From: an uncultured Pseudomonadales bacterium
Lineage (GTDB): Bacteria; Pseudomonadota; Gammaproteobacteria; Pseudomonadales; Azotimanducaceae
DNA length: 64,000 nucleotides
NCBI GenBank assembly: GCA_958296025.1
Contig: OY282430.1
Coordinates: forward strand, 1,798,001-1,862,000
Direction: 5' to 3'
In this document: positions 35,911-52,138 of the stretch, piece by piece
Layout of the letters: every line of letters starts with the position of its first letter
How positions within the stretch are numbered: position 1 is the stretch's first letter
Program-made: the position numbers and the translations under genes
The notes under the pieces: generated by a model
Databases searched by the model: none
What the model was told of the DNA's origin: nothing
What the model saw: only the letters and a program-made list of their open reading frames with translations

Positions 35911-36378
35911 GTGGGTCCTGAAACCGATGTCCTGAGCGTCGCCAGCGGCGGCGAGAACCTCTGGCCGCTGCTGATATACGCCTTTTTCGTGGGGGTGGTG
36001 CTGGTCGGCGCCATCGGCGGCTCTTGGTTGTTGGGGGCGCGCACCAAGCGGCGCAAGGCCACGGACCTGCCCTTCGAGTCCGGCATCATCGCGGTGGGCG
36101 AGGCGGAGCAAACCAAGCTGTCCATCGAGTTCTACCTGATTGCCATGTTCTTCGTCATCTTCGACCTGGAGACCATCTTCATCTTCGGCTGGGCCGTGGC
36201 CTTCTTCGAGCTGGGCTGGCGCGGCTATGCAGGGGCCGCCGTGTTCATCGTCATCCTGCTGGTCGCCTTGGTTTATGAATGGCGCAGCGGCGCCTTGGAT
36301 TGGGGCGTTAAGCAGCGCCTAATGCGCCGGGACTACGCCAGGCGGCCGGCCCCCGCAACTCCCGGCGGAGGCGCCTGA
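35911..36378 (+). CDS. nuoA: NADH-quinone oxidoreductase subunit A
   Basis: 155-residue membrane subunit, first gene of the complex I operon. The GTG at 35911 is chosen since AAGGAAG lies just before it; ATGs further upstream give unlike sequence. Three membrane helices are visible ([41 protein letters not shown] and [17 protein letters not shown]), and the family motifs LPFESGI and [11 protein letters not shown] are intact. The ~190 bases upstream should hold the operon promoter, which I could not fix. Confidence 0.94.
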
Positions 36379-36379: not shown

Positions 36380-37105
36380 ATGCAGTGGCGGCTGGTCAAG
36401 ACGGCGCCCGATGCGCCCATGCAGTCCCCCGACGAGGTCTATCAGGAGCAGGTGGCCAAGGGCTTCCTGACAGCGAAGCTGGACGACTTGGTGGCTTGGG
36501 GCCGGGCCAACTCCATGTGGCCGTTCAACTTCGGTCTGTCCTGCTGCTATGTGGAGATGGCTACGGCCTTGACGCCCCGCCATGACTTGGCCCGCTTCGG
36601 CGCCGAGGTCATTCGCGCCACCCCCCGGCAGGCGGACCTGATCGTCATCGCCGGCACCGTGTTTCGCAAGATGGCGCCAGTGGTGCAGTTCCTCTACGAT
36701 CAGCTGCTGGAGCCCAAATGGGTCATCTCCATGGGCTCCTGCGCCAATTCCGGCGGCATGTACGACATCTACAGCGTGGTGCAGGGCGTGGACAAGTTCC
36801 TGCCGGTGGATGTCTATGTGCCCGGTTGCCCACCCCGCCCGGAGACCCTCCTGCAAGGGCTGACCCTGCTGCAGGAGGCGGTGAAGGGCCGCCCACGCCC
36901 CTTCAGCTGGCTTTTGCGGGAGGACGGTTCGGTCAGCAAGTACCAGCCCAGCCAGCGGGACAAGCACACGCCGCAGCGAATGCGGGCGACAGTTCTGGAA
37001 ACGCCGGACAATGTCGGCCATGCGCCCCTGTCCAAGGACTTGCTGCGCGAGCAGACACCCTCCCCAGCCGTCAGGTTCGGGCGCAACGGGGCTGACCAAG
37101 GCTGA
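36380..37105 (+). CDS. nuoB: NADH-quinone oxidoreductase subunit B
   Basis: 241-residue peripheral-arm subunit carrying cluster N2 beside the quinone site. The tandem cysteines [22 protein letters not shown] and [11 protein letters not shown] bind the cluster. It starts one base after the nuoA stop. A ~55-residue basic C-terminal tail ([20 protein letters not shown] onward) extends beyond the core. The stop overlaps the start of nuoCD (TGATG). Confidence 0.96.
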
Positions 37106-38919
37106 TGGCGGCCGCAGCGGCAACCGCGGCGGCTGCTTCGGATGCCGAGGGGGGCGGCCCTCCGACGGCTCTTAACCGGGAAGCTCCAGGGGGCGGTCCC
37201 GCGCATGGGCGCCATTGGCGGCAGCGGTTCGGCGAAGACGTCCAAGTGCAGGAAAGCGCCGACGGCATTCCCAACCTTTGGGTGCCTAGGCAGCGCTTGC
37301 TGGAGGTGATGCGTGGGCTGAAGGGCGACTACCCCATGCTGTTCGACCTCTCCGCCGTGGACGAGCGCAGCCGCAGCCACCGCGATGGCCTGCCGGAATC
37401 CGATTTCACGGTCTTCTACCATCTGCTGTCCCTAAACGGCCACGGGGACCTGCGCGTCAAGGTGGCCTTGGCGGAGGACAGCTGCGAACTGCCCAGCCTC
37501 ACCCCAGTCTGGCCGGCGGCGAATTGGTATGAGCGGGAGGCGTACGACATGTTCGGCGTCCGCTTCGACGGCCATCCCAACCTCTATCGCATCCTCACCC
37601 CGGCCCTTTGGGAGGGGCACCCGTTGCGCAAGGACCATCCGGCCCGCGCCACGGAGATGGACCCCTACTGCATGACCGACGAGGTCCTGGAGGCCCAACA
37701 AAGCAGCCTGCTGTTCAAGCCGGAGGAATGGGGCATGTCCCGGCAGGCTAAGCATACGGACTTCATGTTCCTGAACTTGGGGCCGAACCATCCCAGCGTT
37801 CACGGCGTGTTCCGCATCGCCCTGCAGTTGGATGGCGAAGTGGTGGTCGATGCGGTGCCGGACATCGGCTACCACCACCGGGGCGCGGAAAAGATGGGGG
37901 AGCGGCAGTCCTGGCACACCTACATCCCCTATACGGACCGGGTGGACTACCTAGGCGGGGTGATGAACAACCTGCCCTACGTCATGGCGGTGGAGCGCAT
38001 GGCCGGCATTCAGGTGCCGGAGCGGGCGCAGGTGATCCGGGTGATGATGGCGGAATTTTTCCGCATCGCCAGCCACCTGCTGTTCTTCGGCACCTTCGCT
38101 CAGGACGTGGGGCAGATGTCCCCGGTGTTCTACATGTTCGCGGACCGGGAGCGGCTGTTCAGCATCGTCGAGGCCATCACCGGCGGGCGCATGCATCCGG
38201 CTTGGTTCCGCATCGGCGGCGTGACGCAAGACTTGCCGGACGGTTGGGATGTCATGGTGCGGGATTTTGTCGATTACATGCCGGCGCGCATGGACCACTA
38301 CGACAAGATGGCCACCCATAACGGCATCCTCAAGCAGCGCACCGTCGGCATCGGCCAGTACGACACCGCCGAGGCCATCGACTGGGGCGTCACCGGGCCG
38401 GGCCTGCGCGCCACCGGGCTGGAGTGGGACCTGCGCAAGCAGCGCCCTTACAGCGGCTACGAGCAATTCGACTTCGAGGTGCCGACCGCCGCCAACGGCG
38501 ACTGCTACGACCGCTGCGTGGTGCGGGTGGAGGAGATCCGCCAAAGCCTGCGCATCATCCGCCAATGCTTGGACAACATGCCCGCCGGCCCCTACAAGGC
38601 GGACCACCCCCAAGCGACGCCGCCGCCCAAGGAGCGGACGATGCAGGACATCGAGACCCTCATCCAGCACTTCCTGAACGTCAGTTGGGGGCCGGTGCTG
38701 CCGCCGTCCGAATGCAGCGTCATGGTGGAGGCCACCAAGGGCCTGAACGCCTACTACCTGACCTCGGACGGCGGCACCATGTCCTACCGCACCCGCATCC
38801 GCACCCCTTCCTTCCCGCACCTGCAGATGATCCCGATGATCTCTCGGGGCTTCATGATCGCGGACCTGATCGCCATCATCGCCAGCATCGACTTCGTCAT
38901 GGCGGACGTGGACCGCTAG
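37105..38919 (+). CDS. nuoCD: NADH-quinone oxidoreductase, fused subunits C and D
   Basis: 604 residues with the 30-kDa (NuoC) domain in residues ~40-200 ([24 protein letters not shown]) fused to the 49-kDa (NuoD) domain from ~215 on ([31 protein letters not shown], and the C-terminal [13 protein letters not shown]). The C-D fusion is found in E. coli and many gammaproteobacteria. It has an Ala/Gly-rich N-terminal stretch of ~35 residues. It contributes to the quinone-binding cavity with NuoB. Confidence 0.97.
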
Positions 38920-38931
38920 GGGAGGGCGATC

Positions 38932-39420
38932 ATGGCCGAACCCGCATTGGTGCAGATGCTCTCCGACGCGGAAGTGCGCGAAATCGAGGCGGAATGCGCC
39001 CACCTGCCGGACCGCCAGTCCGCCGCCATCGACGCCATGATGATCGTGCAGCGGCACCGCGGCTGGGTGTCCGACGAGAGCTTGGCCGCCATCGCCCAGC
39101 TGCTGGGCATGTCCACCGCCGCCCTGGACAGCATCGCCACCTTCTACAACCTGATCTACCGCAAGCCGGTGGGCCGCCATGTGGTGATGGTTTGCGACAG
39201 CGTCTCCTGCTACGTCATGGGGGCCGACGGCCTGCGCAAGCAGGTGGAGAACCATCTAGGCGTCCAGCTGGGCCAGACCACGGCGGACGGGCGGTTCACG
39301 TTGTTGCCCATCGTCTGCCTAGGCGCCTGCGACAAGGCGCCGACGATGATGATCGATGATGACTTGATTGAGAACGTGACGGCGGAGCGTCTGGGGGAGA
39401 TCTTTGGGGGGTATGCGTGA
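38932..39420 (+). CDS. nuoE: NADH-quinone oxidoreductase subunit E
   Basis: 162-residue 24-kDa subunit with one 2Fe-2S cluster. Cysteines are in VMVCDSVSCYVMG and IVCLGACDKAPTMMID. It begins 13 bases after nuoCD, with GGAG upstream. The 84-base gap to nuoF is longer than the other spacers in this operon. Confidence 0.95.
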   Translation: MAEPALVQMLSDAEVREIEAECAHLPDRQSAAIDAMMIVQRHRGWVSDESLAAIAQLLGMSTAALDSIATFYNLIYRKPVGRHVVMVCDSVSCYVMGADGLRKQVENHLGVQLGQTTADGRFTLLPIVCLGACDKAPTMMIDDDLIENVTAERLGEIFGGYA

Positions 39421-39504
39421 GGTGGCGACACGAAGGATTCTGATGACCGTGCAGGATGCGGGCTGCCGGGCGAAACTAAGTATCCGACCGGGGTATTTGA
39501 TCAA

Positions 39505-40809
39505 ATGACCATTAGTGAAAGGCCGCTTATCGGCGTGGTTGATGACGTAGGCGGTCCGGTGGGCATGTCCGCCTACGAATCCCACGGCGGCTACGCCGGT
39601 GCCCGCCAGGCGTTGGCGTCCATGACGCCCGGCGAGGTGATTGCGCTGGTCAAGGACGCCAACCTGCGCGGCAGGGGCGGGGCCGGCTTTCCCACCGGCC
39701 TGAAGTGGAGCTTCGTGCCGCAGGGGGAGAAGGCCGATGGCGGCGTGAAGTACTTGGTCTGCAACGGCGATGAAATGGAGCCGGGCACCTTCAAGGACCG
39801 CTACCTGCTGGAGTACAACCCGCACCTGCTGGTGGAGGGCATGATCATCGGCGCTTGGGCCATCGGCGCCGAGCAGGGCTACGTCTTCCTGCGCGGCGAG
39901 TACCATCTGCCATATCGCCGCTTGCAGGCCGCCATTGACGAAGCCTACGCCAAGGGCTATCTAGGTGAAAACCTGTTTGGCGGCGGCTTTAAGTTTGACC
40001 TGCGCATCCACCGCAGCGCCGGGCGCTACATCTGCGGCGAGGAAACCGCCCTGCTGAACGCTTTGGAGGGCAAGCGCGGCCAGCCCCGCACCAAGCCGCC
40101 GTTTCCCCCGGCCAGCGGCGCCTGGGGGCGGCCCACCATCGTCAACAACGTGGAGACGTTCTGCAACGTCCCCGCCATCCTGCGCAACGGTGCCGAGTGG
40201 TATCAAGAGCTCGGCCGGGGCGAGGACGCCGGCACCAAGCTCTACGGCGTTTCGGGCAGGGTCAACAAACCTGGCCTGTGGGAGTTGCCCATCGGCACCT
40301 CCATCCGCGAGATCATCGACCAGCACGCCGGCGGCATGCAGGAAGGCTACCAGCTGCGCGGCCTGCTGCCCGGCGGCGCCTCCACGGACTTCCTGGTGGA
40401 GCAGCACTTCGACCTCGCCATGGACTACGGCACCATTCAGGCAGCCGGCAGCCGCATGGGCACCGGCACCATGATCCTCATGGACGACTCCATCTGCCCA
40501 GTCGATATGTGCCGCAACCTGGAGCACTTCTTCGCCCAGGAATCCTGCGGCTTCTGCACCCCCTGCCGGGAGGGCCTCCCTTGGGTGGAGCAACTGCTGA
40601 CGGACATTGAGGAAGGCCGCGGCCGGGAGGGGGACCTGGAAATGCTGGACCGCAACGCCGCCTTCATCGGCGGCGTGACGAACACTTTTTGCCTACATGC
40701 GCCAGGAGCCATGGAACCACTATCGAGCGCCTTGAAGTATTTCCGGGAGGATTTCGAGGAGCATGTGCGGACGGGGGAGTGCCAGTATAACGCTAGGGTA
40801 AACAACTAA
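39505..40809 (+). CDS. nuoF: NADH-quinone oxidoreductase subunit F
   Basis: 434-residue NADH-binding, FMN-containing subunit. The NADH/FMN glycine region RGRGGAGFPTGLKWSF, CNGDEMEPGTFKDR, GRYICGEETALLNALEGKRGQPR and the 4Fe-4S cysteines ESCGFCTPCREGLPW with a later FCLHAPGA are present. In nearly all genomes nuoG follows directly; here about 6 kb of unrelated DNA intervenes. Confidence 0.96.
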   Translation: MTISERPLIGVVDDVGGPVGMSAYESHGGYAGARQALASMTPGEVIALVKDANLRGRGGAGFPTGLKWSFVPQGEKADGGVKYLVCNGDEMEPGTFKDRYLLEYNPHLLVEGMIIGAWAIGAEQGYVFLRGEYHLPYRRLQAAIDEAYAKGYLGENLFGGGFKFDLRIHRSAGRYICGEETALLNALEGKRGQPRTKPPFPPASGAWGRPTIVNNVETFCNVPAILRNGAEWYQELGRGEDAGTKLYGVSGRVNKPGLWELPIGTSIREIIDQHAGGMQEGYQLRGLLPGGASTDFLVEQHFDLAMDYGTIQAAGSRMGTGTMILMDDSICPVDMCRNLEHFFAQESCGFCTPCREGLPWVEQLLTDIEEGRGREGDLEMLDRNAAFIGGVTNTFCLHAPGAMEPLSSALKYFREDFEEHVRTGECQYNARVNN

Positions 40810-40908
40810 CCCACCCAAAAGAACGATAAATTCATGGGACAGAAACGGGAAAAATTGGGCTTGATCAGGTTGCCAAAAGTGGCTGGCTCAGCTTGAGCTG
40901 CAAACGCG

Positions 40909-40914
40909 TATAAT
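40909..40914 (+). promoter_or_regulatory. -10 box before the AT-rich secreted-protein gene
   Basis: A perfect TATAAT (40909-40914), 36 bases before the ATG, with an AAAGGAAAA ribosome site between. No good -35 is visible. This is the first element after nuoF and suggests the insert has its own transcription. Confidence 0.45.
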
Positions 40915-40950
40915 TTCGATAACACACGAATATAGTAAAGGAAAAATTCC

Positions 40951-41667
40951 ATGAAAATCACACTTGGGATACTGGCTGCAGCTATGTTGGTCGCAACCGT
41001 CAAATCGGCATTCCCTGACGAAGGGCAGTGGCGTTATATTTCTATCGTTGATGCCATGACGGATGAAGAGAATTTTTATGCCATCTCGCCGCCGGGAACC
41101 GCTGATTTTCCAATGGCTGGCAACGTGTTCATGACAGCTAGATGTGACAAAATGGAGGAGAAGCCTTTGCGCATTTACTTTGGCATTCATACGGACTACT
41201 TGAATCTCGTCGGTGGTAGCGACAAGGACGCACTCTTCGGGCAGACACCAAATGGCCAGCTATGGCACCGCCTTGAAACGAGAATCGACAAAAGAAAATC
41301 CTTTATGGTATCTGCGTACGAATCTACAGCGGGCGGCACACTTTGGATAACCGGATTGCAGGCCGGAGTGATCTTAACTAATTTCGCTCAGATGAAACTA
41401 AAGCGCTTTCTGGTACGATTAAACTATTATCAGCGAGGAAGAGTGCTGTTCACATTTCCTCTGGTTGGTATGGATAGAGCCTTGGCTAAGTTAGAAGCCA
41501 AATGTAAATACGAATATGACGAAGATTTTGGCATCAGATCAAATATTACCGAAGACGAAGCCTTTTCTTATGCGGAAATCCACTGCTCTATATTCAGTAG
41601 GATCCCGGAATTTCGGGGAAGAAATCAAAGTAAAAATCCGCGTTTTCGTTGCATCGAGAAGAAATGA
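40951..41667 (+). CDS. Exported protein of unknown function inside the nuo operon insert
   Basis: 238 residues with a signal peptide (MKITLGILAAAMLVATVKSA) and an AAAGGA ribosome site. The mature part is basic, with scattered aromatic residues and several cysteines (TARCDKMEE, EAKCKYEYDED, EIHCSIF, FRCIEKK). GC content and codon use (many AT-ending codons) are far below the neighbouring nuo genes, a sign of recent acquisition. I recognise no domain. It could be a periplasmic or secreted protein. Confidence 0.6.
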   Translation: MKITLGILAAAMLVATVKSAFPDEGQWRYISIVDAMTDEENFYAISPPGTADFPMAGNVFMTARCDKMEEKPLRIYFGIHTDYLNLVGGSDKDALFGQTPNGQLWHRLETRIDKRKSFMVSAYESTAGGTLWITGLQAGVILTNFAQMKLKRFLVRLNYYQRGRVLFTFPLVGMDRALAKLEAKCKYEYDEDFGIRSNITEDEAFSYAEIHCSIFSRIPEFRGRNQSKNPRFRCIEKK

Positions 41668-41795
41668 AGCCTTGAGGAAAATACATGTGGCGTATCCGAC
41701 CACAGCCACTGCTGTTCCACAAACTTTCAAACTTTGTGAGCTTGGATCACCGTATTTTGAACCATCCGAGTTATCGAAACTCATATGTACAAAGG

Positions 41796-42495
41796 ATGTA
41801 CAATATCATCGTGCATCATAGCACAATCGCCACGCAGTTGCTCAAGCTGTTGTCGAGATGTGAATTCGAGGTGCTTGCCAGGCACCACGTTGTCGCCAAC
41901 CTAGCGGCGCAGCCTGGGCGGCTTCACCATCTGGGCATCGGGCGTGTGGCGAGGCCGTCGCTGGCACGGGTCAACGCGGAGCAGGAGTTGTGCGAGGATC
42001 TGTTCAGCCGGCCGCTGTGGTGCTGCCGAGGCAAGGCCACCGAGCACGGTTTCGGATTGAGGCACAGGCTATTTTTACTGGACTGCACGACGGCCGACCT
42101 GTACCTTTCGATGTTTCCCCGGGCGAGGTCCAGGCGACGAAAGGCCAGTGAGGCTGCACGTCGGCCTGGACCACGACAGTTTTTTCCCTGCGTTCGCGCG
42201 GGTCATCAACGGAAGGACGTCGGACATTGAGGCGGTGCGGACGGCGCCACGCCTGAAATGGAGGCGTTCATCGGCGCGTTCCGCAACGACGTACTGACGC
42301 AGTTTTGAATCGCCATGCGCGTCCACCTCCTTCTTCTTCGTTATGTTTGCCAACCGCGTCTCTTGAAGCCTCTATGAAGTCCTGCGCATCCTTCAGTTGA
42401 ACCTGTTCGACCGACGGCCTCTCATGGGCCTGCTCAAGCCTAATCCGCCGGACCCATCGGCACACCACCCCCAACTCGCCTTGAAACTCTCCTGA
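41796..42495 (+). pseudogene. Wrecked IS4-family transposase (DUF4372 type)
   Basis: Recognisable pieces in order: the N-terminal NIIVHHSTIATQLLKLLSRCEFEVLA, then HHLGIGRVARPSLARVN and LLDCTTADLYLSMFPRA (the first DDE aspartate), then after a frameshift near 42145 VRLHVGLDHDSFFPAFARVINGRT in another frame, then FRNDVLTQF, a stop, IAMRVHLLLLRY, another stop, and finally LQLNLFDRRPLMGLLKP near 42395-42495. Large internal parts, including later catalytic residues, are missing. The element is dead; its terminal repeats were not found. It dates the insert as old enough to have decayed. Confidence 0.75.
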
Positions 42496-42820
42496 AGTTT
42501 GGGGGGCGGCAACGGACCACAACAGTATTTGTCTTTAAAGAATTGCAGCTCCTTTTGAATTCCGTCGTGAACCAACGTCGCTTCGCGATCTCACCCCCCC
42601 CCTCGGCTGTAGAGCACATCCTAATGTACTATCTCAAAAGTGGGACTACCTCTACCGCTGGAGAGATGATGACCGGCCGGCTGTTGCTGACTGTGAACTC
42701 CCGCGTCACAGGTGCGGCATAGTAAATTCCTGCACGGGCTACTCTGCATTGACAGCTAGGTCCCTAGTATGGGCCGTCCAGAACTCTGTTTTCAAGTTGT
42801 CGTTGCAGCCACTTACACGG
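42496..42820. other. Non-coding decayed stretch inside the nuo insert
   Basis: About 325 bases of mixed composition with no gene, RNA or clean repeat that I can support. It includes a C run near 42593-42601 and lies between the dead transposase and the pRiA4b-like gene; probably decayed mobile DNA. Confidence 0.45.
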
Positions 42821-43465
42821 TTATGAGGTGTAGTGCCCTATCTCCCCTCGCTCCCTATATAGGGCGCAGATCATGCCAATAAGCAAATTTGCTTGAGCGG
42901 TATTGAATGCATATGGATCACGTGATCCATGGAAGCCTAGTAAATTGCTATGTTCTTCATGTTCCGGGTCTCCAAGAGCTTTTAGTAGATTCGCGTATCC
43001 ATAGGGCCCTCCGCAATCTTCCGGTGGACAAGCGCCTTGTCCGTCTATGCATATCGGCCACCCAAAAAGCTTCACGCGGGACGGTAGAGACACCATGTCC
43101 TCCACCTCGATAAGATGTCTCCATCCGTCGCCAAAATCATATAGGTAATAGAATTCTTCTATTCGTTGAATCACATGCTCTAATAGCTGATCTCTCTCAT
43201 CCAAATCGTCGTCTAGTACCTGTTCATCTGGAAAATCTTTGTCAGGAACTAAATATCTTTTCCCTTCTATGAAGAATGCGTGTAGATGGCGATCCTCCCA
43301 TCCCATTGCTCCTTGTATAACGGCGTGTAACTCAAGTAGGGTTATGTTCTTTGGCGCAACGATACGTCGCCATATGTCGCAGAGATATTCTGTGTCGGGC
43401 CCTGTTAGTGATACTTTGAATTGCAGAAAGTCACTTATTTCTCGATGTGATGCGAGCGTAGACAT
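42821..43465 (-). CDS. Plasmid pRiA4b ORF-3-like protein
   Basis: 214 residues from ATG 43465, which has GGAGGG 10 bases upstream; ATG 43483 is the in-frame alternative. The family landmarks are LQFKVSLTGPDTEYLCDIWRRIVAP, LHAVIQGAMGWEDRHLHAF, FYYLYDFGDGWRHLIEVE and the cysteines ACPPEDCGGPYGYANLL. The family is often near mobile elements, and its function is unknown. It appears intact, though the AT-rich composition sets it apart from nuo genes. Confidence 0.8.
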   Translation of the reverse strand: MSTLASHREISDFLQFKVSLTGPDTEYLCDIWRRIVAPKNITLLELHAVIQGAMGWEDRHLHAFFIEGKRYLVPDKDFPDEQVLDDDLDERDQLLEHVIQRIEEFYYLYDFGDGWRHLIEVEDMVSLPSRVKLFGWPICIDGQGACPPEDCGGPYGYANLLKALGDPEHEEHSNLLGFHGSRDPYAFNTAQANLLIGMICALYRERGEIGHYTS

Positions 43466-43538
43466 TTGAAAAGTTCCCTCCATTAGAGTTGAGTTTAGGA
43501 GCAGCTCCCCTATAGGCCGCTGCCGTTTTTGTTTCGAA

Positions 43539-43708
43539 TCAAGAACCAGATAGTAATGCGACCAACAGGGCGCGTTCGTACCTAAAGCCTCGCGCCAGTC
43601 CCTGCTCCAACCCTTCTCTCAAGCCCTGCTCGCGGCCTTTCCCCAACCACTGTTGAGGCCACTGCTTGACCCGTTCCTCCAACGTCATCGCTAGATCCTC
43701 TAAACTCG
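43539..43708 (-). pseudogene. Fragment of an Rpn-family nuclease gene, second copy
   Basis: Minus strand frame SLEDLAMTLEERVKQWPQQW...GKGREQGL, REGLEQGLARGF, ending at a stop after ERALL. It is almost identical to the C-terminal part of the Rpn gene at 45.9-46.1 kb, but truncated at both ends and with a 12-base insertion that adds one more Gln/Gly/Leu repeat unit. It is a remnant of duplication or gene conversion. Confidence 0.7.
43563..43707. repeat. Direct repeat A1 (copy of 45922-46054)
   Basis: About 145 bases aligning with 45922-46054 at high identity except for a 12-base insertion near the middle (CTCTCAAGCC region). Same orientation. The two copies bracket the pair of Xre and ImmA-like genes, so recombination between them could delete or amplify that segment. 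Confidence 0.8.
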
Positions 43709-43818
43709 GATATACGCCAGCTTCTGGCCGGCTAGCAAAGCCTCGTGCGGCGAATTTCCATTCAGTCCGTAAATGGTGGCTTCAGATTGTCTTGGTAGGA
43801 TGTCGCGCATTACGGAGT

Positions 43819-44205
43819 CTAGTCTAATGGACTCGGGTTTTCCACAGGGGCTACATCTTCCACTGTGACTTGCAATGCATCGGCAATGCGGCGAAGGGTC
43901 TCCGGGGTGCAGGAGGCGTTGCCGGACTCAATGGCGGCAAGCTGATGGTCGGAGATGCCCACCGCCGCTGCTAAGGCAGCCGGGGAAACGCCTCGGTATT
44001 CGCGCCACATAATTACGGGATTTTCGCCAGTGCAGAGCCGGTCCACCAAAATGGCGGGAATGGTCTCCTGGTCGGTGGCGGCACGGCTGAGGCGTAGCGC
44101 TTCGGCATCCGCAGCATCCTCCAAGGCGTCGTGCAGGGCGTCGTAGTCCTTGAGCGGCACGATGGCGCACTCGGCATCTTCAATCGTGACCGTTTGCAGT
44201 TTCAT
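43819..44205 (-). CDS. Xre-family helix-turn-helix regulator, antitoxin-like
   Basis: 128 residues, GGAGGGG ribosome site 10 bases before the ATG. The N-terminal ~55 residues (MKLQTVTIEDAECAIVPLKD) resemble the Phd/YefM-like lead seen in HTH antitoxins; residues ~65-120 form a Cro/C1-type HTH (YRGVSPAALAAAVGISDHQLAAIESGNASCTPETLRRIADALQV). It lies 117 bases downstream of the ImmA-like gene on the same strand. No RelE-type toxin frame is adjacent. A regulator or antitoxin role is inferred from the family. Confidence 0.78.
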   Translation of the reverse strand: MKLQTVTIEDAECAIVPLKDYDALHDALEDAADAEALRLSRAATDQETIPAILVDRLCTGENPVIMWREYRGVSPAALAAAVGISDHQLAAIESGNASCTPETLRRIADALQVTVEDVAPVENPSPLD

Positions 44206-44322
44206 GGCTGGTATGCCCCTCCGCGTTTTCTTATGGCTTTCACCGTCATGGTTTGGGTTTCGTCATCGAGGCGTGTCCGACCCGTTAAGCAACTTGAGCA
44301 GGAAGGCGGGCAACAGAATAAA

Positions 44323-45642
44323 TCATGTGTTTGATTGAATTTCCGCAATACGATGATTAACAATCTGGTGTTCTATCACACGGGTGGAAACTCCGAAGTG
44401 TGAAGCCAGTTCATCGAGATCGTCGCCATCCACCACGGAGCCGGATACTTGCTCCCGTAGGGCAGAGGAGGGCGCAAGAAACTCCGCTGCAAACGCTCGA
44501 TTGCGCTGTTGCCGATCAGAGTGCGCCCGGGTGAGCAACTTATCGATGTGCGGTGACGCCAATGTTTCGGCTAAAGCGCGGCAGAAATGGAACCTGCGGT
44601 TGTCTTCCCGAAGGGGGCGCAACGCGAAGGCGGGGGCTTCATCGTCATCTTGGGTGACCACGCCATCCACCAACCGTGCCCCAGTAAAGTTCACTGGCCG
44701 TGTTGCTCGGTCGAGCAACTCGGATGATTCGCCAAGCGCATCCCCCAAGGTCTCCATCGTGTTTAGAGGGTCGGTGCCGAGGTCTAAGCACTGCCGTACT
44801 TGTCGGGCCGAGCTGTATCCGATGTCCCATGAAGAGCGGGCCGGCGAAGGTTCCCGCTCCTGAACGGATTGGCGTATGGACTCAATACGTTGAAAGCATA
44901 GGCCGTTGGATTTGGCCACTTGCATCGCATTGGCGATGCTTTTTCCGCCTGCGTTAATGGCTTGCGGATCAAGAGCAGCCATCGCTTCCTCGAATAACGG
45001 GCCATCTAACTCGTTAGCCAAGCACAGCAAACTTATGCGTTCCGACTCGCCCATGCTATAGGGGTCTAGGCCCAGACCCGCCGCGGCCGCGCAAAATTGC
45101 GATTCATCCGCATCCGCGGACTGAATTGCGGTCCATTCTTCCTGCAACAGAGTGTCGCTAACGTGGAGCGCGGTGAGCCGCCGAATCACGCAGTCGATCA
45201 AGTCGGCGCAGCGCTCTCGAAATTCTTTAACATCCAGCCAAACAGTACCTTGATTCAAAAATTCCACCCTGGACCGGGAAGGCTGACCTCTTGACCAAGC
45301 AAGCTGCATCCTTGTGCCTGAGGATATAGCCTCTAAGTTGGGGAAAGCGTAGCCTTCCCGATTGGGACCCAACGCATGTCGGTGACGGAAGGCTGGATCT
45401 GCCGCCTTGACTGGATTTTCGAATTCATGCGTTAGAAACCACCAATGGGTCGCTAGCCATTCGGCAAGTGGATAGACCGGAACGAACACAAAATCCCGGA
45501 CCGTCTGCGCCCGCATGTCATGGACCTGGGTGACGACCGAGCCGCCCGCGTGAATGCGCAAGGCAGCCCATGTGGCGGCCAATTCCGCGCCTTTGACGCC
45601 CTCTGCATCCAGCCAATCGATCTGAAAGCTAAGATTTGACAT
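44323..45642 (-). CDS. ImmA/IrrE-like protein lacking the zinc motif
   Basis: 439 residues. The C-terminal 90 residues look like the end of an ImmA/IrrE protein: RRFHFCRALAETLAS, then DRQQRNRAFAAEFLAPSSALREQVSG and DELASHFGVSTRVIEHQIVNH (family: FxxxHExGH, EANxFAAELLMP, LAxxFxVSxxAV). At the place of HExxH it reads CRALAE, so no metalloprotease activity is expected. The N-terminal ~330 residues are unknown to me. It precedes the Xre gene on the same strand, like the Xre-ImmA pairs of mobile elements. Confidence 0.62.
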   Translation of the reverse strand: MSNLSFQIDWLDAEGVKGAELAATWAALRIHAGGSVVTQVHDMRAQTVRDFVFVPVYPLAEWLATHWWFLTHEFENPVKAADPAFRHRHALGPNREGYAFPNLEAISSGTRMQLAWSRGQPSRSRVEFLNQGTVWLDVKEFRERCADLIDCVIRRLTALHVSDTLLQEEWTAIQSADADESQFCAAAAGLGLDPYSMGESERISLLCLANELDGPLFEEAMAALDPQAINAGGKSIANAMQVAKSNGLCFQRIESIRQSVQEREPSPARSSWDIGYSSARQVRQCLDLGTDPLNTMETLGDALGESSELLDRATRPVNFTGARLVDGVVTQDDDEAPAFALRPLREDNRRFHFCRALAETLASPHIDKLLTRAHSDRQQRNRAFAAEFLAPSSALREQVSGSVVDGDDLDELASHFGVSTRVIEHQIVNHRIAEIQSNT

Positions 45643-45762
45643 AGATGTTCTCTATGCAATTAGGCCAATCTTCCCTCTGCAATGGGTAGCCCTTGTAGCT
45701 CATCTTCTCATGGGTGGCACGGCAGGCTAACATAGCTTCGATTTTTTGCAGCCTGTGACGCC

Positions 45763-46560
45763 CTATACGGCATCCAAGCGCCGAAGCAACTCCGATCCCG
45801 TTTCGCAGCGCACGATGGCTTCGCCCACTTCCGCGAGGCGCTCTGGGTCTGACACCCCCTCCAACGCCGCCGCTAGCTGGCCAGCCGTCTCCGCATCGAA
45901 CTTCGAACTAGCTTGTCGATGCAGCAGGGCGCGTTCGTGACTAAAGCCTTGCGCCAGTCCCTGCTCCAACCCTTGCTCGCGGCCTTTCCGCAACCACTGT
46001 TGAGGCCACTGCTTGACCCGTTCCTCCAACGTCATCGCCAGATCCTCCAAACTCAAGTTCGCCATCGGTTCTTCGCCGACCGGCTGCAGCCCGCTCGACA
46101 AAACCCTTATCCAATCTGCGAACGCCCGCTTTAGCCCGCCTTCATTGGACGTGGCGAGGCGCTTCAGCAGGGCGTCCACCACCAGCTTGAAGTCCGCCTC
46201 CGAACGGCTCTGCTCCAAGCGGACCACGGCCCTTGTCAATTCGCCCAAGTGTGGACTATCCGCCGCCGTGTGGCGCTCGTCCAGCACCAAGAAGCGCTGC
46301 GATGGCTGCAAGGCCGCCAGCGCCGGCCCGGTCGGCGCAATCAACTCGCGGATGTTCGTTGCCGCCACCCAAGGCGGCTCGCCGCTGTACACCACCACCG
46401 GCAGCGTCGGCGGAAGCAAACCGCCAAGCTCCAGGGTCTTGTTGCGCCGCAGTTCCCGGTACAGCAGGGTAGTGTACTCCAGGATGCGCAGCGCCATCTC
46501 CGGGTCGCTGCGGGACTGAAACTCCAGCAAAACCAGGAATTGCTCTTGCCCCTTACAGCC
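45763..46560 (-). pseudogene. Rpn-family recombination-promoting nuclease, N-terminally truncated
   Basis: Minus strand frame of 265 codons beginning inside the nuclease core (GQEQFLVLLEFQSRSDPEMALRILEYTTLLY) after an in-frame stop at 46561. The PD-(D/E)XK part is only partly present: the first ~60-80 residues of the family (YKxLF region) are missing. The rest is intact, including PVVVYSGEPPW and the C-terminal coil with GREQGLEQGLAQGF repeats. The family moves horizontally and is linked to RecA-independent recombination. Part of the C-terminus is duplicated at 43.6 kb. Confidence 0.75.
45922..46054. repeat. Direct repeat A2 (copy of 43563-43707)
   Basis: 133-base copy lying within the longer Rpn pseudogene. 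See repeat A1; the difference is the 12-base insertion in A1 and a few substitutions. Confidence 0.8.
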
Positions 46561-46824
46561 TCAATCTGTATTGTGGCGCGGTTTTCGCTCGTGCGTCCTT
46601 AGAGGTGCCGGCCCTAAGGAGTGCGGGCCGGGGTTTAGGGTTGCGGCACGGGCTTCAAAGGGGCTAGGCGCGGAACGGCACGGCACAAGTTGCACCGCCG
46701 TCTTCCCATCGTTTGCCCTGTTTAGGTGTCTGCCCCTCTGAAGGGGTGCAAATGCTCGCGGTGAGCCATCGGCCCCAAGAACAAGCGCAAAGGGCGGCAA
46801 CCGGATCGTGGAGGAATGACGCAG
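46561..46824. other. Right edge of the insert, upstream of nuoG
   Basis: 264 bases with no gene. GC rises again. It must either contain a promoter for nuoG-N or allow read-through from nuoF; I found no good consensus promoter. A GGAGG (46810-46814) serves nuoG. Confidence 0.4.
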
Positions 46825-49695
46825 ATGGCCCGCGTCAACATAGACGGCAAGGACTACGAACTTGAGGAAGGCCAGAACCTTCTGCACGCCGTCCTCTCCG
46901 AACATCTTGATCTACCGTATTTCTGTTGGCATCCGGCCATGGGCTCCGTGGGCTCCTGCCGCCTGTGCGCGGTCATTCAGTACGCCAACGAGGAGGACGA
47001 GCGCGGGCGCCTGCAGATGGCCTGCATGATGGCCGTGCGGGATGGCATGCGGGTGGGCATCGGGGCGCCGGGGCGGGAAGGGCCGGGCGCCTTCGCGGCG
47101 GATTTCCGCAAGCAGGTGATCGAGTGGCTGATGGAGAACCATCCCCATGACTGCCCCGTCTGCGAGGAGGGCGGCGAGTGCCACCTGCAGGACATGACGG
47201 TGATGGCCGGCCACGTCAGCCGTCGCTACCGAGGTGCCAAGCGCACCTTCCGCAACCAGTATCTCGGCCCCTTCATCGGCCACGAGATGAATCGTTGCAT
47301 CACCTGCTATCGCTGTGTGCGCTACTACCGGGACTACGCCGGCGGCCAGGACCTGGACGCCTTCGGCGCCCGCGCCCGCATGTTCTTCGGGCGCCAGGAA
47401 GACGGGGTGCTCGAAAGCGAGTTCGCCGGCAACTTGGTGGAGGTTTGCCCCACCGGGGTGTTCACGGACAAGCCGTTCAGCGCCACCTACACCCGCAAGT
47501 GGGACTTGCAGTCCGCGCCATCCATCTGCCCGGGCTGCGCCGTGGGCTGCAACACGCTGCCGGGGGAGCGCTACGGTTCGCTCAAGCGCGTCCACAACCG
47601 CTACCACCCGGACATCAACGGCTACTTCCTCTGCGACCGAGGGCGTTTTGGCAGCCACTTCGTCAACGGCCCCACCCGCCTGCGCCAAGCCGGGGCCAGG
47701 GCCGCAGACGGGGTGTTTGAAGCCTTGGACAGCGAAGCCGCCAGCAAGCGGCTGGCGGAGATTCTTGGGCGCGGCCCGGTCATCGGCATCGGCTCCCCCC
47801 GGGCTTCGATGGAGAGCAACTTCACCCTCAAGCGCTTGGTGGGGGACGGCAACTTCAGCAACGGCCTCAGCGCCGCCGAGAATGAACTGAACCAGCTCGC
47901 CCTCGCCATCATCAAGGCCGGCGGCGCACGGTTGCCCACGGTGGCGGAGGTGGAGTCCGCCGATGCGGTGCTGCTCCTCGGCGAGGACATTCCCAACACC
48001 GCGCCGCGCATCGCCTTGGCCCTGCGCCAAAGCGTCCGCAATCTGTCCTTGGAGATGGCGGCGGAGGCGGGCATACCTCTGTGGCAGGAGGCCGGGGTGC
48101 GCGGCCATGCGCAACAGGCGCACAACCCCTTCTTCACCGCTACGCCGGCGCCAACCCGCTTGGATGATTTGGCCACCAGCAGTTTGCACGTCAACCCGGA
48201 AACCATTGCCGGCGTCGGTTTCGACATAGCCCACGGCATTGAGAGCTCGTTTGCGCCAGGTGGCCGCAACGCTGCAAACGCTGCTTTGCCGAGGGCGCCA
48301 ACCGATCAGGTTGCGACGGACGATGGCGGGGATGGGTCCGGCGCACAAGAGAATCAGCGTCGGGCGGACGCATTCATCGCCGGCGCGATTCAGGCCTTGG
48401 CGCAAGCCGAGAGGCCCTTGGTGGTGACCGGCACCGCCGGGGGCAGCGCGGATGTGCTCAGGGCCGCCGCCAATGTCGCTTGGGCGTTGGCCAAGCAGGG
48501 CAAGGATGCAGCGCTCCTGATCGCCGGGCGGGAGGCCAACAGCATGGGCGTCGCCCTGTTGGGGGCGGAGTTAGCCCTGGAGGACGCCCTGGAGCGCCTT
48601 GCTGAAGGCTCGGCCGGCGCCGCCATCGTGTTGGAGAACGATCTCCATCGCCGCCTGCCCTCGGCACAGGTGCAGGCGGCCTTGTCCGCCGCCAAGGATC
48701 TCGTGGTGCTGGACGTGTTGGAGACGGCCACGGCGGAAGCGGCCACCTTGGTGCTGCCGGCGGCCAGTTTCGCGGAGAGCACTGGCGCCTTCGTCAACTA
48801 TGAAGGCCGTGCCCAACGGTTCTACCAAGTGTTTGAACCCCAAGGCGATATCCGCCCCGCTTGGCGCTGGCTGGCCGCCGCCGCCCAAGCCGCCGGCCGC
48901 AATGACCTCCGCTTCGATCATATCGACAAAGTGGCCGAAGCCTGCGCAGCGTCCGATGCGGTCTTGGCCGGCCTGTCTGCGGCGGCGCCCAAGGCCGGCT
49001 ACCGCACCAGCGCCCAGCAGCGCATTCCGCGCATGACCCATCGGGCCAGCGGGCGCACCGCCGAGCATGCGGACCTGAGCGTGCATGAGCCGAAAGCTCC
49101 GGTGGATGCGCAAACGCCCTTCGCCTACTCCATGGAAGGGCTCAACGGCGCCCAGCCCGGTACCCTGCTCCCCTACGTCTGGTCGCCGGGCTGGAACTCC
49201 AATCAGTCGGTGTTCAAGTTTCAGCAGGAAGTCGGCGGGCCGCTGCAAGGCGGCGATGGTGGCGTGCGGCTGCTTCGACCCAATGGCAAGGCCACCGCTG
49301 AAGACCTCGCCGGCCGATTCAGTGATCCGCCCAAACTAGCCGCCAAGTCGAACGACGGCTTGCGCCTGACGCCCCTGCATCCCATATTCGGTTCCGAAGA
49401 GCTTTCCGCCCATTCGCCGCCGGTCGCCGAGCGCAGTGGCGGCGCCGAGGTTTTGCTGCACCCGGATGACGCCGCTGCCCTGGGTTTGCAAGCGGGGCAG
49501 GGTGCCCGGGTGGAGGGCGCAGGTTCCTTGGCGGTGCGCCTTGAGCCGGCCATGGCCGGCGGCTGCGCTGGAGTGACCTTGGGCCTGCTGGACGGCCCAA
49601 AAGTCCTATTGGGCGCCTTGGTCGCCATCGAACCGGATCCGGGCTTCAAACCCCGTCCTGTGCCGCCGGCACTGATCGCCCGGAGCTCGTCTTAA
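46825..49695 (+). CDS. nuoG: NADH-quinone oxidoreductase subunit G
   Basis: 956-residue large Fe-S subunit. Two ATGs are possible; 46825 (MARVNIDGKDYELEEGQ) is 10 bases from GGAGG, while 46816 abuts it. Cluster motifs: CWHPAMGSVGSCRLCAV (2Fe-2S), HPHDCPVCEEGGECHLQDM (His-ligated 4Fe-4S), CITCYRCVRYYRDYAGG, and CPGCAVGCN. The molybdopterin-oxidoreductase-like domain fills the rest. It is the first gene after the insert and restores the normal nuo order. Confidence 0.96.
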   Translation: MARVNIDGKDYELEEGQNLLHAVLSEHLDLPYFCWHPAMGSVGSCRLCAVIQYANEEDERGRLQMACMMAVRDGMRVGIGAPGREGPGAFAADFRKQVIEWLMENHPHDCPVCEEGGECHLQDMTVMAGHVSRRYRGAKRTFRNQYLGPFIGHEMNRCITCYRCVRYYRDYAGGQDLDAFGARARMFFGRQEDGVLESEFAGNLVEVCPTGVFTDKPFSATYTRKWDLQSAPSICPGCAVGCNTLPGERYGSLKRVHNRYHPDINGYFLCDRGRFGSHFVNGPTRLRQAGARAADGVFEALDSEAASKRLAEILGRGPVIGIGSPRASMESNFTLKRLVGDGNFSNGLSAAENELNQLALAIIKAGGARLPTVAEVESADAVLLLGEDIPNTAPRIALALRQSVRNLSLEMAAEAGIPLWQEAGVRGHAQQAHNPFFTATPAPTRLDDLATSSLHVNPETIAGVGFDIAHGIESSFAPGGRNAANAALPRAPTDQVATDDGGDGSGAQENQRRADAFIAGAIQALAQAERPLVVTGTAGGSADVLRAAANVAWALAKQGKDAALLIAGREANSMGVALLGAELALEDALERLAEGSAGAAIVLENDLHRRLPSAQVQAALSAAKDLVVLDVLETATAEAATLVLPAASFAESTGAFVNYEGRAQRFYQVFEPQGDIRPAWRWLAAAAQAAGRNDLRFDHIDKVAEACAASDAVLAGLSAAAPKAGYRTSAQQRIPRMTHRASGRTAEHADLSVHEPKAPVDAQTPFAYSMEGLNGAQPGTLLPYVWSPGWNSNQSVFKFQQEVGGPLQGGDGGVRLLRPNGKATAEDLAGRFSDPPKLAAKSNDGLRLTPLHPIFGSEELSAHSPPVAERSGGAEVLLHPDDAAALGLQAGQGARVEGAGSLAVRLEPAMAGGCAGVTLGLLDGPKVLLGALVAIEPDPGFKPRPVPPALIARSSS

Positions 49696-49824
49696 TGGCG
49701 GAAATGTGCACTCACCATGCCCTGTGCCGTTTGCGGCTTGCGTGGTGGAGAAGCGCCGGCGCCGCCCATTTTCTTCGGCATCGGTCCTGCATCGCGCCAT
49801 GACGGATTCGACGGGGGCATAGCG

Positions 49825-50784
49825 ATGGAACTCGATCTCGCCTTCATCATGATCGCACCAGTGCTCGGCGGTGCCCTGGCCAGCGCGGCCCTGTTGATCT
49901 GGTGGGAGCGGCGCCTGCTCGGTTTCTGGCAAGACCGCTTGGGGCCGAACCGGGTGGGTCCCTTCGGCCTGCTGCAAATCGTCGCGGACGTGGTGAAACT
50001 GCTCACCAAGCACGATTGGGTGCCGCCGTTCTCGGACCGGGTGGTGTTCACCCTGGCGCCCTGCGCCATCGCCGGCGGCATGCTGATGGCCTTCGCCGTA
50101 GTGCCCTTCGGCCCCGGCTTGGTGGTCGGCGACCTGAACATCGGCGTGTTGTTCTTCCTGGCCATGACCTCCGTTGCCGTCTATGGGGTGCTGCTCGGCG
50201 GGTTGGCCAGCAACAACAAATACGCGCTCATCGGTGGCCTGCGCAGCGGGGCGCAGATGGTCACTTACGAGGTGTTCATGGGCCTTTCCCTGATGGGCGT
50301 GGTGCTGCTGTCCGGCTCCTTCAACCTCAGCGACATCGTCCGCGCTCAAGAGGATGTGTGGTTCGTGTTTCCCCAAGCGCTGGGCTTCATCGTTTTCCTC
50401 ATCGCCGGCTTGGCGGAGACCCACCGCCTGCCCTTTGACCTGCCGGAGGCGGAGCATGAGCTGGCGGCCGGCTTCCACACCGAATACTCCTCCATGAAGT
50501 TCGGCCTCATCATGGTGGGGGAGTACCTGGGCGTCATTCTCACCTCGGCCATGGTCGTCATCCTGTTTTTCGGCGGTTGGCTGGGGCCGGGCTTCCTGCC
50601 GCCCATCGTCTGGTTTTCGTTGAAGACCGCTTTCTTCGTGTGCGGCTTCATCCTGCTGCGGGCGGCCATCCCCAGGCCGCGTTACGATCAACTGATGTCC
50701 TTGGGCTGGAAGATTCTGCTGCCGATCACCTTGGTCAACCTGCTGGCCACCGGCGCCATCGCCCTGCTGCGGACGGGTGCCTAA
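49825..50784 (+). CDS. nuoH: NADH-quinone oxidoreductase subunit H
   Basis: 319-residue membrane subunit at the arm junction. The ATG 49825 (MELDLAFIMIAPVLGG) fits the family start; the upstream frame is not membrane-like. About eight helices and the motifs WWERRLLGFWQDRLGPNRVGPFGLLQ and AGLAETHRLPFDLPEAEHELAAGFHTEYSSMKFG are intact. Confidence 0.96.
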   Translation: MELDLAFIMIAPVLGGALASAALLIWWERRLLGFWQDRLGPNRVGPFGLLQIVADVVKLLTKHDWVPPFSDRVVFTLAPCAIAGGMLMAFAVVPFGPGLVVGDLNIGVLFFLAMTSVAVYGVLLGGLASNNKYALIGGLRSGAQMVTYEVFMGLSLMGVVLLSGSFNLSDIVRAQEDVWFVFPQALGFIVFLIAGLAETHRLPFDLPEAEHELAAGFHTEYSSMKFGLIMVGEYLGVILTSAMVVILFFGGWLGPGFLPPIVWFSLKTAFFVCGFILLRAAIPRPRYDQLMSLGWKILLPITLVNLLATGAIALLRTGA

Positions 50785-50787
50785 GCC

Positions 50788-51303
50788 ATGTGGAGCCATT
50801 TGCGAACCCTGTGGACGGTGTTGCAGCACACCTTCTCGCGCAACGAGACGGTGCAGTACCCGGAGGAGATGCCATACCTAGCCCCCCGCTACCGGGGCCG
50901 CATCGTGCTGACCCGGGACCCGGACGGGGAGGAGCGCTGCGTGGCCTGCAACCTCTGTGCGGTGGCCTGCCCGGTGGACTGCATCGCCCTGCAGAAGACT
51001 CAGGGGGAGGACGGGCGCTGGTATCCCGAATTCTTCCGCATCAACTTCTCCCGCTGCATCATGTGCGGCATGTGCGAGGAGGCCTGCCCCACCTACGCCA
51101 TCCAGCTGACGCCGGACTTCGAGCTCTGCGAGTTCAACCGCGACAACATGGTCTATGAGAAGGAGCACCTGTTGATCGACGGCGTGGGCAAGTACCCGGA
51201 CTATTCCTTCTGGCAGGTGGCTGGCAAGACCATCGCCGGCAAGGACAAGGGAGAGGCGCAGAACGAGCGTCCGCCCCTTGATGTGCGGGATCTGCTGCCG
51301 TGA
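50788..51303 (+). CDS. nuoI: NADH-quinone oxidoreductase subunit I
   Basis: 171-residue ferredoxin-like subunit with two 4Fe-4S clusters: [18 protein letters not shown] and [18 protein letters not shown]. It starts 3 bases after nuoH and its stop overlaps the GTG of nuoJ. Confidence 0.96.
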
Positions 51304-51821
51304 GCCTGGAGATCGTCCTGTTCTATCTGGCGGCGCTGGTGGCGCTGGCGGCCACGGGCCTGGCCGTCACCCGCACCAACGCCTCCCATGCGCTGATCTA
51401 TCTGATCATTTCCCTGTTGGCGGTGGCGGTTGTCTTCTACCTGCTCGGCGCCGCCTTCGCCGCCGCCCTGGAGGTGGTGATCTACGCTGGCGCCATCGTG
51501 GTGTTCTTCCTGTTCGTGGTGATGATGCTGAACTTGGGCCGCAGCGCCGAAGAGCAGGAGCGTCGTTGGCTGCCGCCCAAAATGTGGATCGGTCCCGGCG
51601 TTTTGAGCGCAGTGCTGCTGCTGGAGATGATCGCCCTCATCGCCGGCTCCGACGCCGCCACTTCTGGAACGCCAGTGCCGCCCAAGGCGGTGGGCATCGA
51701 GCTGTTCGGCCCCTATCTTTTGGCGGTGGAGCTGGCCTCCCTGCTGCTGCTGGCCGGTCTGGTCGGTGCTTTTCATCTCGGCCGCCGCTACATGCGGGCG
51801 CGGCGGGAGGAGATCGAGTGA
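51300..51821 (+). CDS. nuoJ: NADH-quinone oxidoreductase subunit J
   Basis: 173-residue membrane subunit, GTG start overlapping the nuoI stop. Five helices; [49 protein letters not shown] is the conserved core with the pi-bulge helix. Confidence 0.94.
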
Positions 51822-52132: not shown

Positions 52133-52138
52133 CCGGCG

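What the first reader, a model, noticed from the sequence alone, without database searches (positions are those of the whole stretch)
40810..46824. Complex I operon split by a ~6 kb accessory insert between nuoF and nuoG
nuoA, B, CD, E, F are in order, then about 6 kb of unrelated, partly AT-rich DNA, then nuoG to nuoN in perfect order. In almost all genomes with this operon nuoF and nuoG are adjacent. The insert carries an exported protein, an IS4-type transposase relic, a pRiA4b-like gene, an Xre/ImmA-like pair and Rpn relics. Complex I needs stoichiometric subunits, so either nuoG-N have a new promoter or the insert is transcribed through. It also suggests a hot spot that tolerates insertion in an essential-looking operon.
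Basis: partly seen in the sequence, partly recalled or inferred. Interest (0 to 1): 0.75.

Follow-up and report, generated by a model that had tools for sequence, protein, structure and literature searches.

The report
Horizontally spread split complex I operon
In this bacterium the genes for the first respiratory enzyme are cut in two by unrelated DNA, and comparison with relatives suggests that the cut, with what looks like a second start signal for the rear half, came in from another genus together with the neighbouring genes.

Summary
In detail: nuoA-F ends at 40809 and nuoG-N starts at 46816-46825, with 6.0 kb of mostly lower-GC accessory DNA between. It is hardly a misassembly and not a private insertion. 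In 7 of the 9 genomes of the window's genus nuoF and nuoG are apart. In those 7, nuoE, nuoF and the first ~100-134 codons of nuoG belong phylogenetically to another genus ("g58"), while nuoB-CD and nuoG codon 134 onward are native (AU tests, p 2e-74 or less). The 2 genus mates with native-type nuoF are intact. In g58 the F|G split is the rule (11 of 13), with in-situ inserts of 2.0-6.9 kb in 8. In genus g7 exactly the 2 of 9 genomes with g58-type nuoF are split. The split therefore co-travels with the tract, most simply by homologous recombination through nuo genes. A promoter-like element (TTGCCC-N17-TATTGT, 46546-46574) precedes nuoG and is shared with g58; the same type precedes nuoA. All 30 motif hits in 524 kb of loci from the three genera lie at nuoA or nuoG. 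The two half-operons probably have matching promoters, leaving the joint as a slot for accessory genes. Promoter function is inferred; no RNA data.

The parts
35842..35870 (+). nuoA-side promoter-like element TTGCGC-N17-TATCGT
   Evidence: same type as the element before nuoG; nuoA probably starts downstream of it (the listed ORF from TTG 35833 is probably over-extended)
35833..36378 (+). nuoA ORF as listed
36380..37105 (+). nuoB (native)
37105..38919 (+). nuoCD (native)
38830..47216 (+). largest extent of the foreign (g58-type) tract: nuoE, nuoF, joint, 5' nuoG; smallest extent about 38980-47115; origin of the insert inside it is open
   Evidence: informative sites and gene trees; AU tests
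38932..39420 (+). nuoE (foreign)
39505..40809 (+). nuoF (foreign)
40810..46815 (.). accessory insert in the nuoF|nuoG joint
40951..41667 (+). orphan ORF with signal-like N terminus
   Evidence: no Pfam family; signal peptide judged by eye
41685..42230 (+). transposase remnant with DUF4372 N-terminal piece
   Evidence: below Pfam cut-off; IS4 kinship is recalled
42821..43483 (-). pRiA4b ORF-3-like gene
43563..43707 (-). second Rpn fragment
43819..44205 (-). HTH (Xre-type) gene
44323..45642 (-). IrrE/ImmA-domain gene
45763..46530 (-). Rpn-like (Transposase_31) gene, profile matched from position 75 only; relic shared with G005
46546..46574 (+). nuoG-side promoter-like element TTGCCC-N17-TATTGT with TG before the -10
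46816..49695 (+). nuoG; codons 1 to ~100-134 foreign, rest native
49717..56888 (+). nuoH to nuoN (nuoH, I, K, M tested together: native)

Best explanation
The nuo operon here is a two-part operon, nuoA-F and nuoG-N, and that layout was inherited and imported. Shown by sequence: (1) nuoE, nuoF and the 5' end of nuoG in the window's sub-lineage come from relatives of GTDB genus g58, while the flanking nuo genes are native. (2) In g58 the same F|G joint is open in 11 of 13 genomes, and in g7 only the two genomes with g58-type nuoF are split. (3) A promoter-like element shared with g58 sits before nuoG, and the same element type sits before nuoA. Inferred: a g58-type segment (nuoE-nuoF-[spacer with promoter]-nuoG') entered by double homologous recombination using the nuo genes as arms. 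nuoG-N is then transcribed from its own promoter, matched to that of nuoA, so the halves stay balanced without read-through. Freed from co-transcription, the joint gains and loses accessory cargo: Rpn, toxin-antitoxin-like and transposon debris in the window; a CoA ligase in the sister sub-lineage; a Na:Ala symporter, a PLP enzyme or other genes in g58.
For: Layout. Phylogenetic conflict. AU tests on 22 of 38 taxa: the tract rejects the native grouping (delta lnL 196, p 1e-86); the rest rejects the foreign grouping (delta lnL 775, p 2e-74). Co-segregation of split and g58-type nuoF: g1 7 of 7 against 0 of 2, g7 2 of 2 against 0 of 6 (one more cut by a contig end), g58 11 of 13. Promoter element: TTGCNC-N16..18-TANNNT before nuoG in 12 of 12 genomes with a broken operon (0-2% of shuffles each; the looser form 1-14%), in all 8 g58 in-situ gaps, and in 0 of 32 loci with a closed F|G joint (looser form 4 of 32). 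A blastn match of 44 bp at 86% (E 6e-8) between window and the g58 genome G171 covers this element. Strict pattern once in 64 kb of window (expected 0.05-0.1); relaxed pattern 30 hits in 524 kb of 25 loci from the three genera, 15 before nuoG and 15 before nuoA, and 5 hits in 540 kb of 29 intact-nuo loci, 3 at nuoA (two of them the same genome) and none at nuoG. Specific to nuo: the atp and ribosomal clusters are not broken up in the 15 genomes, contig ends apart. The mechanism has precedent in print (PMC5635113, passages seen).
Against: No RNA evidence. The motif was found post hoc, matches the E. coli consensus in 8 of 12 positions, and the generic scanner did not list it. The 0 hits in 425 kb of atp and ribosomal loci only show that those operons do not use it: chance alone would give less than one. 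The nuoA and nuoG elements need not share a regulator. G182/G061 carries g58-type nuoE-F with an intact joint and no element at nuoG. In the g7 recipients G058/G059 the element before nuoG is weaker (TAATCT) and neither nuoA nor nuoG has the relaxed pattern. Apart from the motif block, spacer homology between lineages is weak (best 6, 17 and 20 of 400 shuffles among 12 between-lineage pairs). Cargo is not shared between recipients and g58, so the insert itself may postdate the transfer. The ribosomal tree places G004 with the other clade (0.95, on part of the genes because its contig is cut). In the g7 recipients nuoE and nuoB are mixed (4F:3n and 13F:9n) and nuoG is foreign as far as tested (24F:2n), so their tract differs in extent.
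Confidence: 0.78

Rival explanations
1. The tract was imported intact (F and G adjacent, as in G182) and the joint was opened later, independently, in the window's sub-lineage by ordinary insertions.
For: Cargo differs from g58; spacer homology outside the motif is weak; G182 shows g58-type nuoE-F with an intact joint.
Against: The element before nuoG with its flank (TATTGTGGCGCGG) is shared by window, G005 and six g58 genomes and occurs nowhere else in the sequence held; 11 of 13 g58 genomes and both g7 recipients are split; in the tract trees the recipients fall beside G058-G060, all with a broken operon (the wider grouping is not rejected).
Confidence: 0.15
2. nuoG-N is served by read-through from nuoA-F and the element before nuoG is not a promoter.
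For: No terminator-like site right after nuoF on the + strand (the two + strand hits lie at 44.9 and 45.1 kb); in the sister sub-lineage the CoA ligase in the gap is co-directional.
Against: Four of the window's insert genes point against the operon; in G058, G059, G060 and G071 the parts lie far apart on one-contig chromosomes (for G071 at least 14 kb); the element is conserved and, in the loci held, tied to nuo.
Confidence: 0.1
3. Simple mobile-element insertion: an IS or island hopped into the joint of this genome.
For: Transposase remnant and Rpn genes in the insert; 17 Rpn family matches in this genome.
Against: No repeat pair of 14 nt or more bounds the insert (shorter target duplications were not tested); the transposase is a remnant; nuoF and nuoG are apart in all 7 members of the sub-lineage and in most of g58.
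Confidence: 0.05
4. Misassembly or strain mixture.
For: Metagenome-derived genomes in general.
Against: Several one-contig chromosomes (G000, G005, G058, G059, G060, G071) and draft genomes show related breaks with conserved edges.
Confidence: 0.01

Closest known systems
[quoted passage not shown] 2017, PMC5635113; passages seen)
   Same: Variable accessory content between conserved genes; phylogenetic conflict in those flanking genes; little sign of an integrase.
   Different: Here the slot lies inside an operon for one enzyme complex, the exchange is between genera, and the joint carries a second operon promoter-like element.
Mosaic operons by gene displacement in situ (term and 2003 work recalled; one search showed only papers that use the phrase)
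   Same: Foreign genes replace native ones at the same position in a conserved operon.
   Different: The imported piece seems to carry an open joint and a promoter-like element, so the operon's architecture moves with the genes.
nuoA-N operon of Pseudomonas putida (PMC6072106, passages seen)
   Same: The nuoA-N gene set; putative sigma70-type promoters PN-I and PN-II upstream of nuoA.
   Different: Here there is a second, matching element before nuoG and 6 kb between nuoF and nuoG.
Core defence hotspots of Pseudomonas aeruginosa (PMC10250203, search listing and abstract start only)
   Same: A fixed core location with changing accessory or defence cargo.
   Different: Those are not described, in the little that I saw, as splitting a respiratory operon.

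Membership tests
HGT hotspot with recombination at flanking core genes | Different cargo at the same joint in related genomes | tested here: met
HGT hotspot with recombination at flanking core genes | Flanking core genes conflict with the rest of the genome | tested here: met
   conflict with the other nuo genes and the atp genes: (ribosomal tree partly discordant for G004)
HGT hotspot with recombination at flanking core genes | No integrase or recognisable mobile element | tested here: inconclusive
   Only a transposase remnant among the window insert ORFs scanned; not every ORF of every insert was scanned
HGT hotspot with recombination at flanking core genes | Statistically excessive gene turnover versus other spots of the genome | not tested
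   Would need the whole pan-genome
Mosaic operon / in situ displacement | Foreign genes at the native position with order kept | tested here: met
Standard nuoA-N operon | All 13 genes (fused nuoCD) in order and open | tested here: met
Standard nuoA-N operon | nuoF directly followed by nuoG | tested here: not met
   6.0-kb gap
Standard nuoA-N operon | Transcription of the whole set from promoters before nuoA only | tested here: inconclusive
   conserved promoter-like element before nuoG; no RNA data
Transposon or IS insertion | Intact transposase with terminal repeats at the insert edges | tested here: not met
   (no repeat pair of 14 nt or more at 40810/46815)

The most novel reading that the evidence does not exclude
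A split complex I operon with a matched pair of nuo-specific promoters is a selected and transmissible architecture: g58-type nuoE-F-promoter-nuoG' is repeatedly exported between genera because it lets the cell set nuoA-F and nuoG-N separately, and CHAT-like peptidase genes of family DUF6642 that settle right behind nuoE or nuoF control turnover of the NADH module.
Probability: 0.12. Interest if true: 0.85.

Novelty: new variant of a known kind. Interest (0 to 1): 0.62.

Why it matters
Complex I operons are normally kept whole; nuoF-nuoG adjacency held in 70 of 80 loci here. This case suggests how such an operon can be cut without evident loss of the enzyme genes: a matching promoter-like element appears at the cut, the cut is passed between genera by recombination through its own conserved genes, and the gap becomes a landing place for accessory DNA. 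It makes operon break-up testable: intact, in-situ split and fully separated states coexist in three related genera, with the donor-like genus identified.

Tried and rejected
Generic sigma70/terminator scan of the joints: found no more than shuffles and did not list the conserved element, which scores 8 of 12. Remnants of a displaced native nuoE/F/G in the inserts: none at E 0.1. General operon decay: rejected, as the atp and ribosomal clusters are kept together; several of those regions are cut by contig ends, and the reference ORF set for the ribosomal control contains antisense ORFs, so that control is crude. Shared cargo between g58 and recipient gaps: none by tblastn of the window's five insert proteins (the transposase remnant was not used), the CoA ligase and DUF6642 proteins against the F|G gaps, apart from a 29% CoA-ligase match upstream of nuoF in G060. 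Homology of spacers outside the motif: weak. A defence-island reading of the window insert: PADLOC hits to the window proteins are partial HTH, RmrA, capP and ZorA matches (best 5e-9), so rejected. DUF6642 genes lie directly behind nuoE or nuoF in 4 of 17 matches in 15 genomes, but the 12 of 13 others that I looked at sit elsewhere and the nuo-side copies are only 26-37% identical to each other, so I treat this as a lead only. Literature: the lists shown (15 of 31 papers; 10 of 14; 8 of 4,035; 7 of 7; 3 of 3; 8 of 41; 1 of 1; 0), open PMC library only, named nothing that I recognised as a split nuo operon in these bacteria, and no paper holds the word DUF6642; PMC8941161 (passages) has no word beginning with nuo. 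The AU script (up to 38 taxa) timed out; searches used 22 of those 38 taxa and the -fast setting. The trees left out L043, L044, L045 and L051 as separate rows because they are the same contigs as G-handle genomes. nuoCD informative sites in g1 start at codon 489 because G004's nuoCD is cut. Equating G073/G058, G112/G059, G110/G060, G182/G061, G159/G062, G165/G063 and G095/L066 rests on equal contig lengths and coordinates.
Full report
WHAT IS THERE. The window is bases 1798001-1862000 of a one-contig genome of 3.9 Mb. nuoA, B, CD, E, F lie at 35.8-40.8 kb and nuoG to nuoN at 46.8-56.9 kb, all open and in order. Between nuoF (stop 40809) and nuoG lie 6.0 kb of mostly lower-GC DNA with an orphan ORF carrying a signal-like start, a transposase remnant, a pRiA4b-like gene, an HTH gene, an ImmA-domain gene, an Rpn-like gene and a second Rpn fragment. 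The pRiA4b, HTH, ImmA and Rpn genes run against the operon. No repeat pair of 14 nt or more bounds the insert.

HOW COMMON IS IT. Of the 80 public loci kept for the window's NuoF, 70 have nuoF and nuoG within 348 bp; 4 have a measured split (1.8, 2.3, 7.3, 8.2 kb), 3 have no nuoG within the roughly 10 kb held downstream, and 3 end within 0.7-3.4 kb of nuoF. These 10 are 6 from the window's genus (g1 in the tool's numbering), 2 from g7 and 2 from g58; their record titles are uncultured Pseudomonadales or Gammaproteobacteria MAGs and 'Candidatus Azophilus lithoversatilis'. That many of these are marine sponge symbionts is recalled, not tested.

LAYOUT IN THE THREE GENERA. g1, 9 genomes: 7 separated (window 6.0 kb, G005 2.3, G006 7.3, G008 1.8, G003 8.2; in G001 and G007 nuoF ends near a contig edge and nuoG, with 0.9-2.4 kb of other DNA before it, is on another contig) and 2 adjacent (G002, G004). 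g7, 9 genomes: 2 separated (G073/G058 about 205 kb, G112/G059 about 829 kb, both one contig), 6 adjacent, 1 cut inside nuoF. g58, 16 genomes searched, 13 with nuoF: 8 have in-situ inserts of 2.0, 2.0, 2.6, 2.6, 5.0, 5.1, 6.4 and 6.9 kb; G071 (one contig) has no nuoG in 14 kb; G062/G159 and G063/G165 have nuoG on another contig; G182/G061 (5 bp) and G110/G060 (160 bp, but nuoE 560 kb away) are joined at F|G. In the genomes of these three genera mapped gene by gene, breaks over 500 bp fall at CD|E, E|F and F|G only. The atp cluster and the S10-spc-alpha region stay together in the 15 genomes checked, apart from contig ends.

THE TRACT IS FOREIGN. Gene by gene, the 7 split g1 genomes group with G002/G004 for nuoB and nuoCD (G002 only, G004 being cut), whole nuoG and nuoH+I+K+M, but with g58 (and the two g7 exceptions) for nuoE and nuoF. 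Window scans put the borders between nuoCD codon 575 and nuoE codon 17-22, and between nuoG codons 100 and 134: informative sites are nuoE 9 foreign to 0 native, nuoF 16 to 4, nuoG 1-100 10 to 0, nuoG from 134 on 4 to 25, nuoCD 2 to 12, nuoH 0 to 31, with a smaller donor set, gives the same borders. With all genomes, the nuoCD C-terminal part gives g1, g7 and g58 each monophyletic (0.87, 0.62, 0.95), whereas nuoE, nuoF and nuoG 1-100 unite g58 + 7 g1 + 2 g7 (0.94, 0.996, 0.997), and nuoG 134-480 returns g1 to monophyly (0.99) but not g7 or g58, as expected if the g7 recipients' nuoG is foreign further in. AU tests on 22 of 38 taxa: the tract rejects g1 monophyly (delta lnL 196, p 1e-86); the rest rejects union with the other clade (delta lnL 775, p 2e-74). 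For the g7 recipients the rest of the operon rejects union with G060-G063 (p 0.014) and the tract rejects union with the g7 member L066 (p 2e-4). The atp tree separates the window's genus from the other clade (1.0 and 0.52 printed on the two sides of its root); the ribosomal tree keeps G002 with the window's group (1.0) but places G004, for which part of the genes is missing, with the other clade (0.95).

THE SPLIT TRAVELS WITH THE TRACT. Genomes with native-type nuoF in g1 and g7 are adjacent wherever visible (8 of 8; 1 more cut by a contig end); those with g58-type nuoF are separated (9 of 9), as are 11 of 13 in g58. The insert of the window lies inside the foreign tract. Cargo is not shared between recipients and g58: the window and G005 share Rpn debris, the five other g1 genomes a CoA ligase (in G007 only part of it is on the contig), and g58 gaps hold a Na:Ala symporter, a PLP enzyme or other genes.

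A PROMOTER-LIKE ELEMENT BEFORE nuoG, MATCHED TO nuoA. Upstream of nuoG 12 of 12 genomes with a broken operon have a TTGCNC-N16..18-TANNNT element; G061, with its closed joint, has none. Dinucleotide shuffles of each segment have it in 0-2%, and the looser TTGNNN form in 1-14%. Of 32 loci with a closed F|G joint none has it and 4 have the looser form. In the window it reads TTGCCC-N17-TATTGT with TG before the -10, at 46546-46574. The same element stands in all 8 in-situ gaps of g58, with the flank GGCGCGG shared by six of them; TATTGTGGCGCGG occurs nowhere else in the sequence held, and blastn by itself finds a 44-bp, 86% match of this block between window and G171 (E 6e-8). The same element type precedes nuoA in 5 g1 and 10 g58 loci, in the window at 35842-35870; the g7 recipients lack the relaxed pattern at both places. 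TTGC[CT]C-N16..18-TAT[TGC]GT occurs once in the window (expected 0.05-0.1). The relaxed form (TTGCNC) has 30 hits in 524 kb of 25 loci from the three genera, 15 before nuoG and 15 before nuoA. In 540 kb of 29 intact-nuo loci there are 5 hits, 3 before nuoA (two of them one genome) and none before nuoG. In 425 kb of atp and ribosomal loci there are none, but chance would give less than one there. The motif was defined on these sequences, so its absence elsewhere, not its presence, is the test.

MECHANISM. Best reading: in the g58 lineage nuoG-N gained its own nuo-type promoter and the joint opened; a segment nuoE-nuoF-[promoter]-nuoG' then entered the ancestors of the window's sub-lineage and of two g7 genomes by homologous recombination through the nuo genes themselves, the route proposed for hotspots without mobile elements in PMC5635113 (passages seen). 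With two matched promoters the halves no longer need one transcript, and the gap collects and loses cargo. Shown: foreign tract, co-segregation, conserved elements. Inferred: that the elements are promoters, that recombination moved joint and tract in one piece, and that balance is kept.

LIMITS. There are no RNA or protein data; several relatives are draft genomes; the exact donor is not sampled; G182 has g58-type nuoE-F with an intact joint, so the tract does not force the split; spacer homology outside the motif is weak; and in the g7 recipients the extent of the tract differs.

Noticed in passing
L035/L116 (G001), L044 (G005), L193 (G060): Small genes of Pfam DUF6642 (CHAT/caspase-like by eye) begin within about 20 bp after nuoE or nuoF; 4 of only 17 matches in 15 genomes. 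In 150 family genomes the family occurs in 12, all in g1, g7, g58 and g14.
   Followed up: partly
L288 5254-6589 (G151, nuoE|nuoF gap): A 203-aa protein (no Pfam hit) with HG and SACG motifs resembling CHAT peptidases by eye, behind a 106-aa ORF that looks like DUF2442 from memory; part of the region is shared with G171.
   Followed up: no
L044 6902-8663 (G005, nuoE|nuoF gap): An AAA ATPase resembling the HEC-01A defence model (4e-52) followed by a DUF4276 protein.
   Followed up: no
L037 from 11440 (G058 after nuoF) and L193 from 14471 (G060 after nuoE): The same two-gene pair, apparently a cytosine methylase and a GHKL-type ATPase (names by eye), 84% identical over 3 kb, sits behind different broken ends of the nuo operon, but not in the 10 kb after nuoF of the close relative G059.
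   Followed up: no
G000:C1:1062535-1066695 (L002): A second NuoE/F/G-like cluster (41% NuoF, 28% NuoG) elsewhere in the genome, with counterparts in relatives; probably another NAD-linked enzyme.
   Followed up: no
L067: A record titled Klebsiella pneumoniae MAG carries a nuo operon of this Pseudomonadales type (NuoF 71%); the title is probably wrong.
   Followed up: no
L082-L111, Pontibacter loci: In Pontibacter the joints A|B, B|CD, CD|E and H|I are often 100-970 bp wide while F|G stays tight.
   Followed up: no
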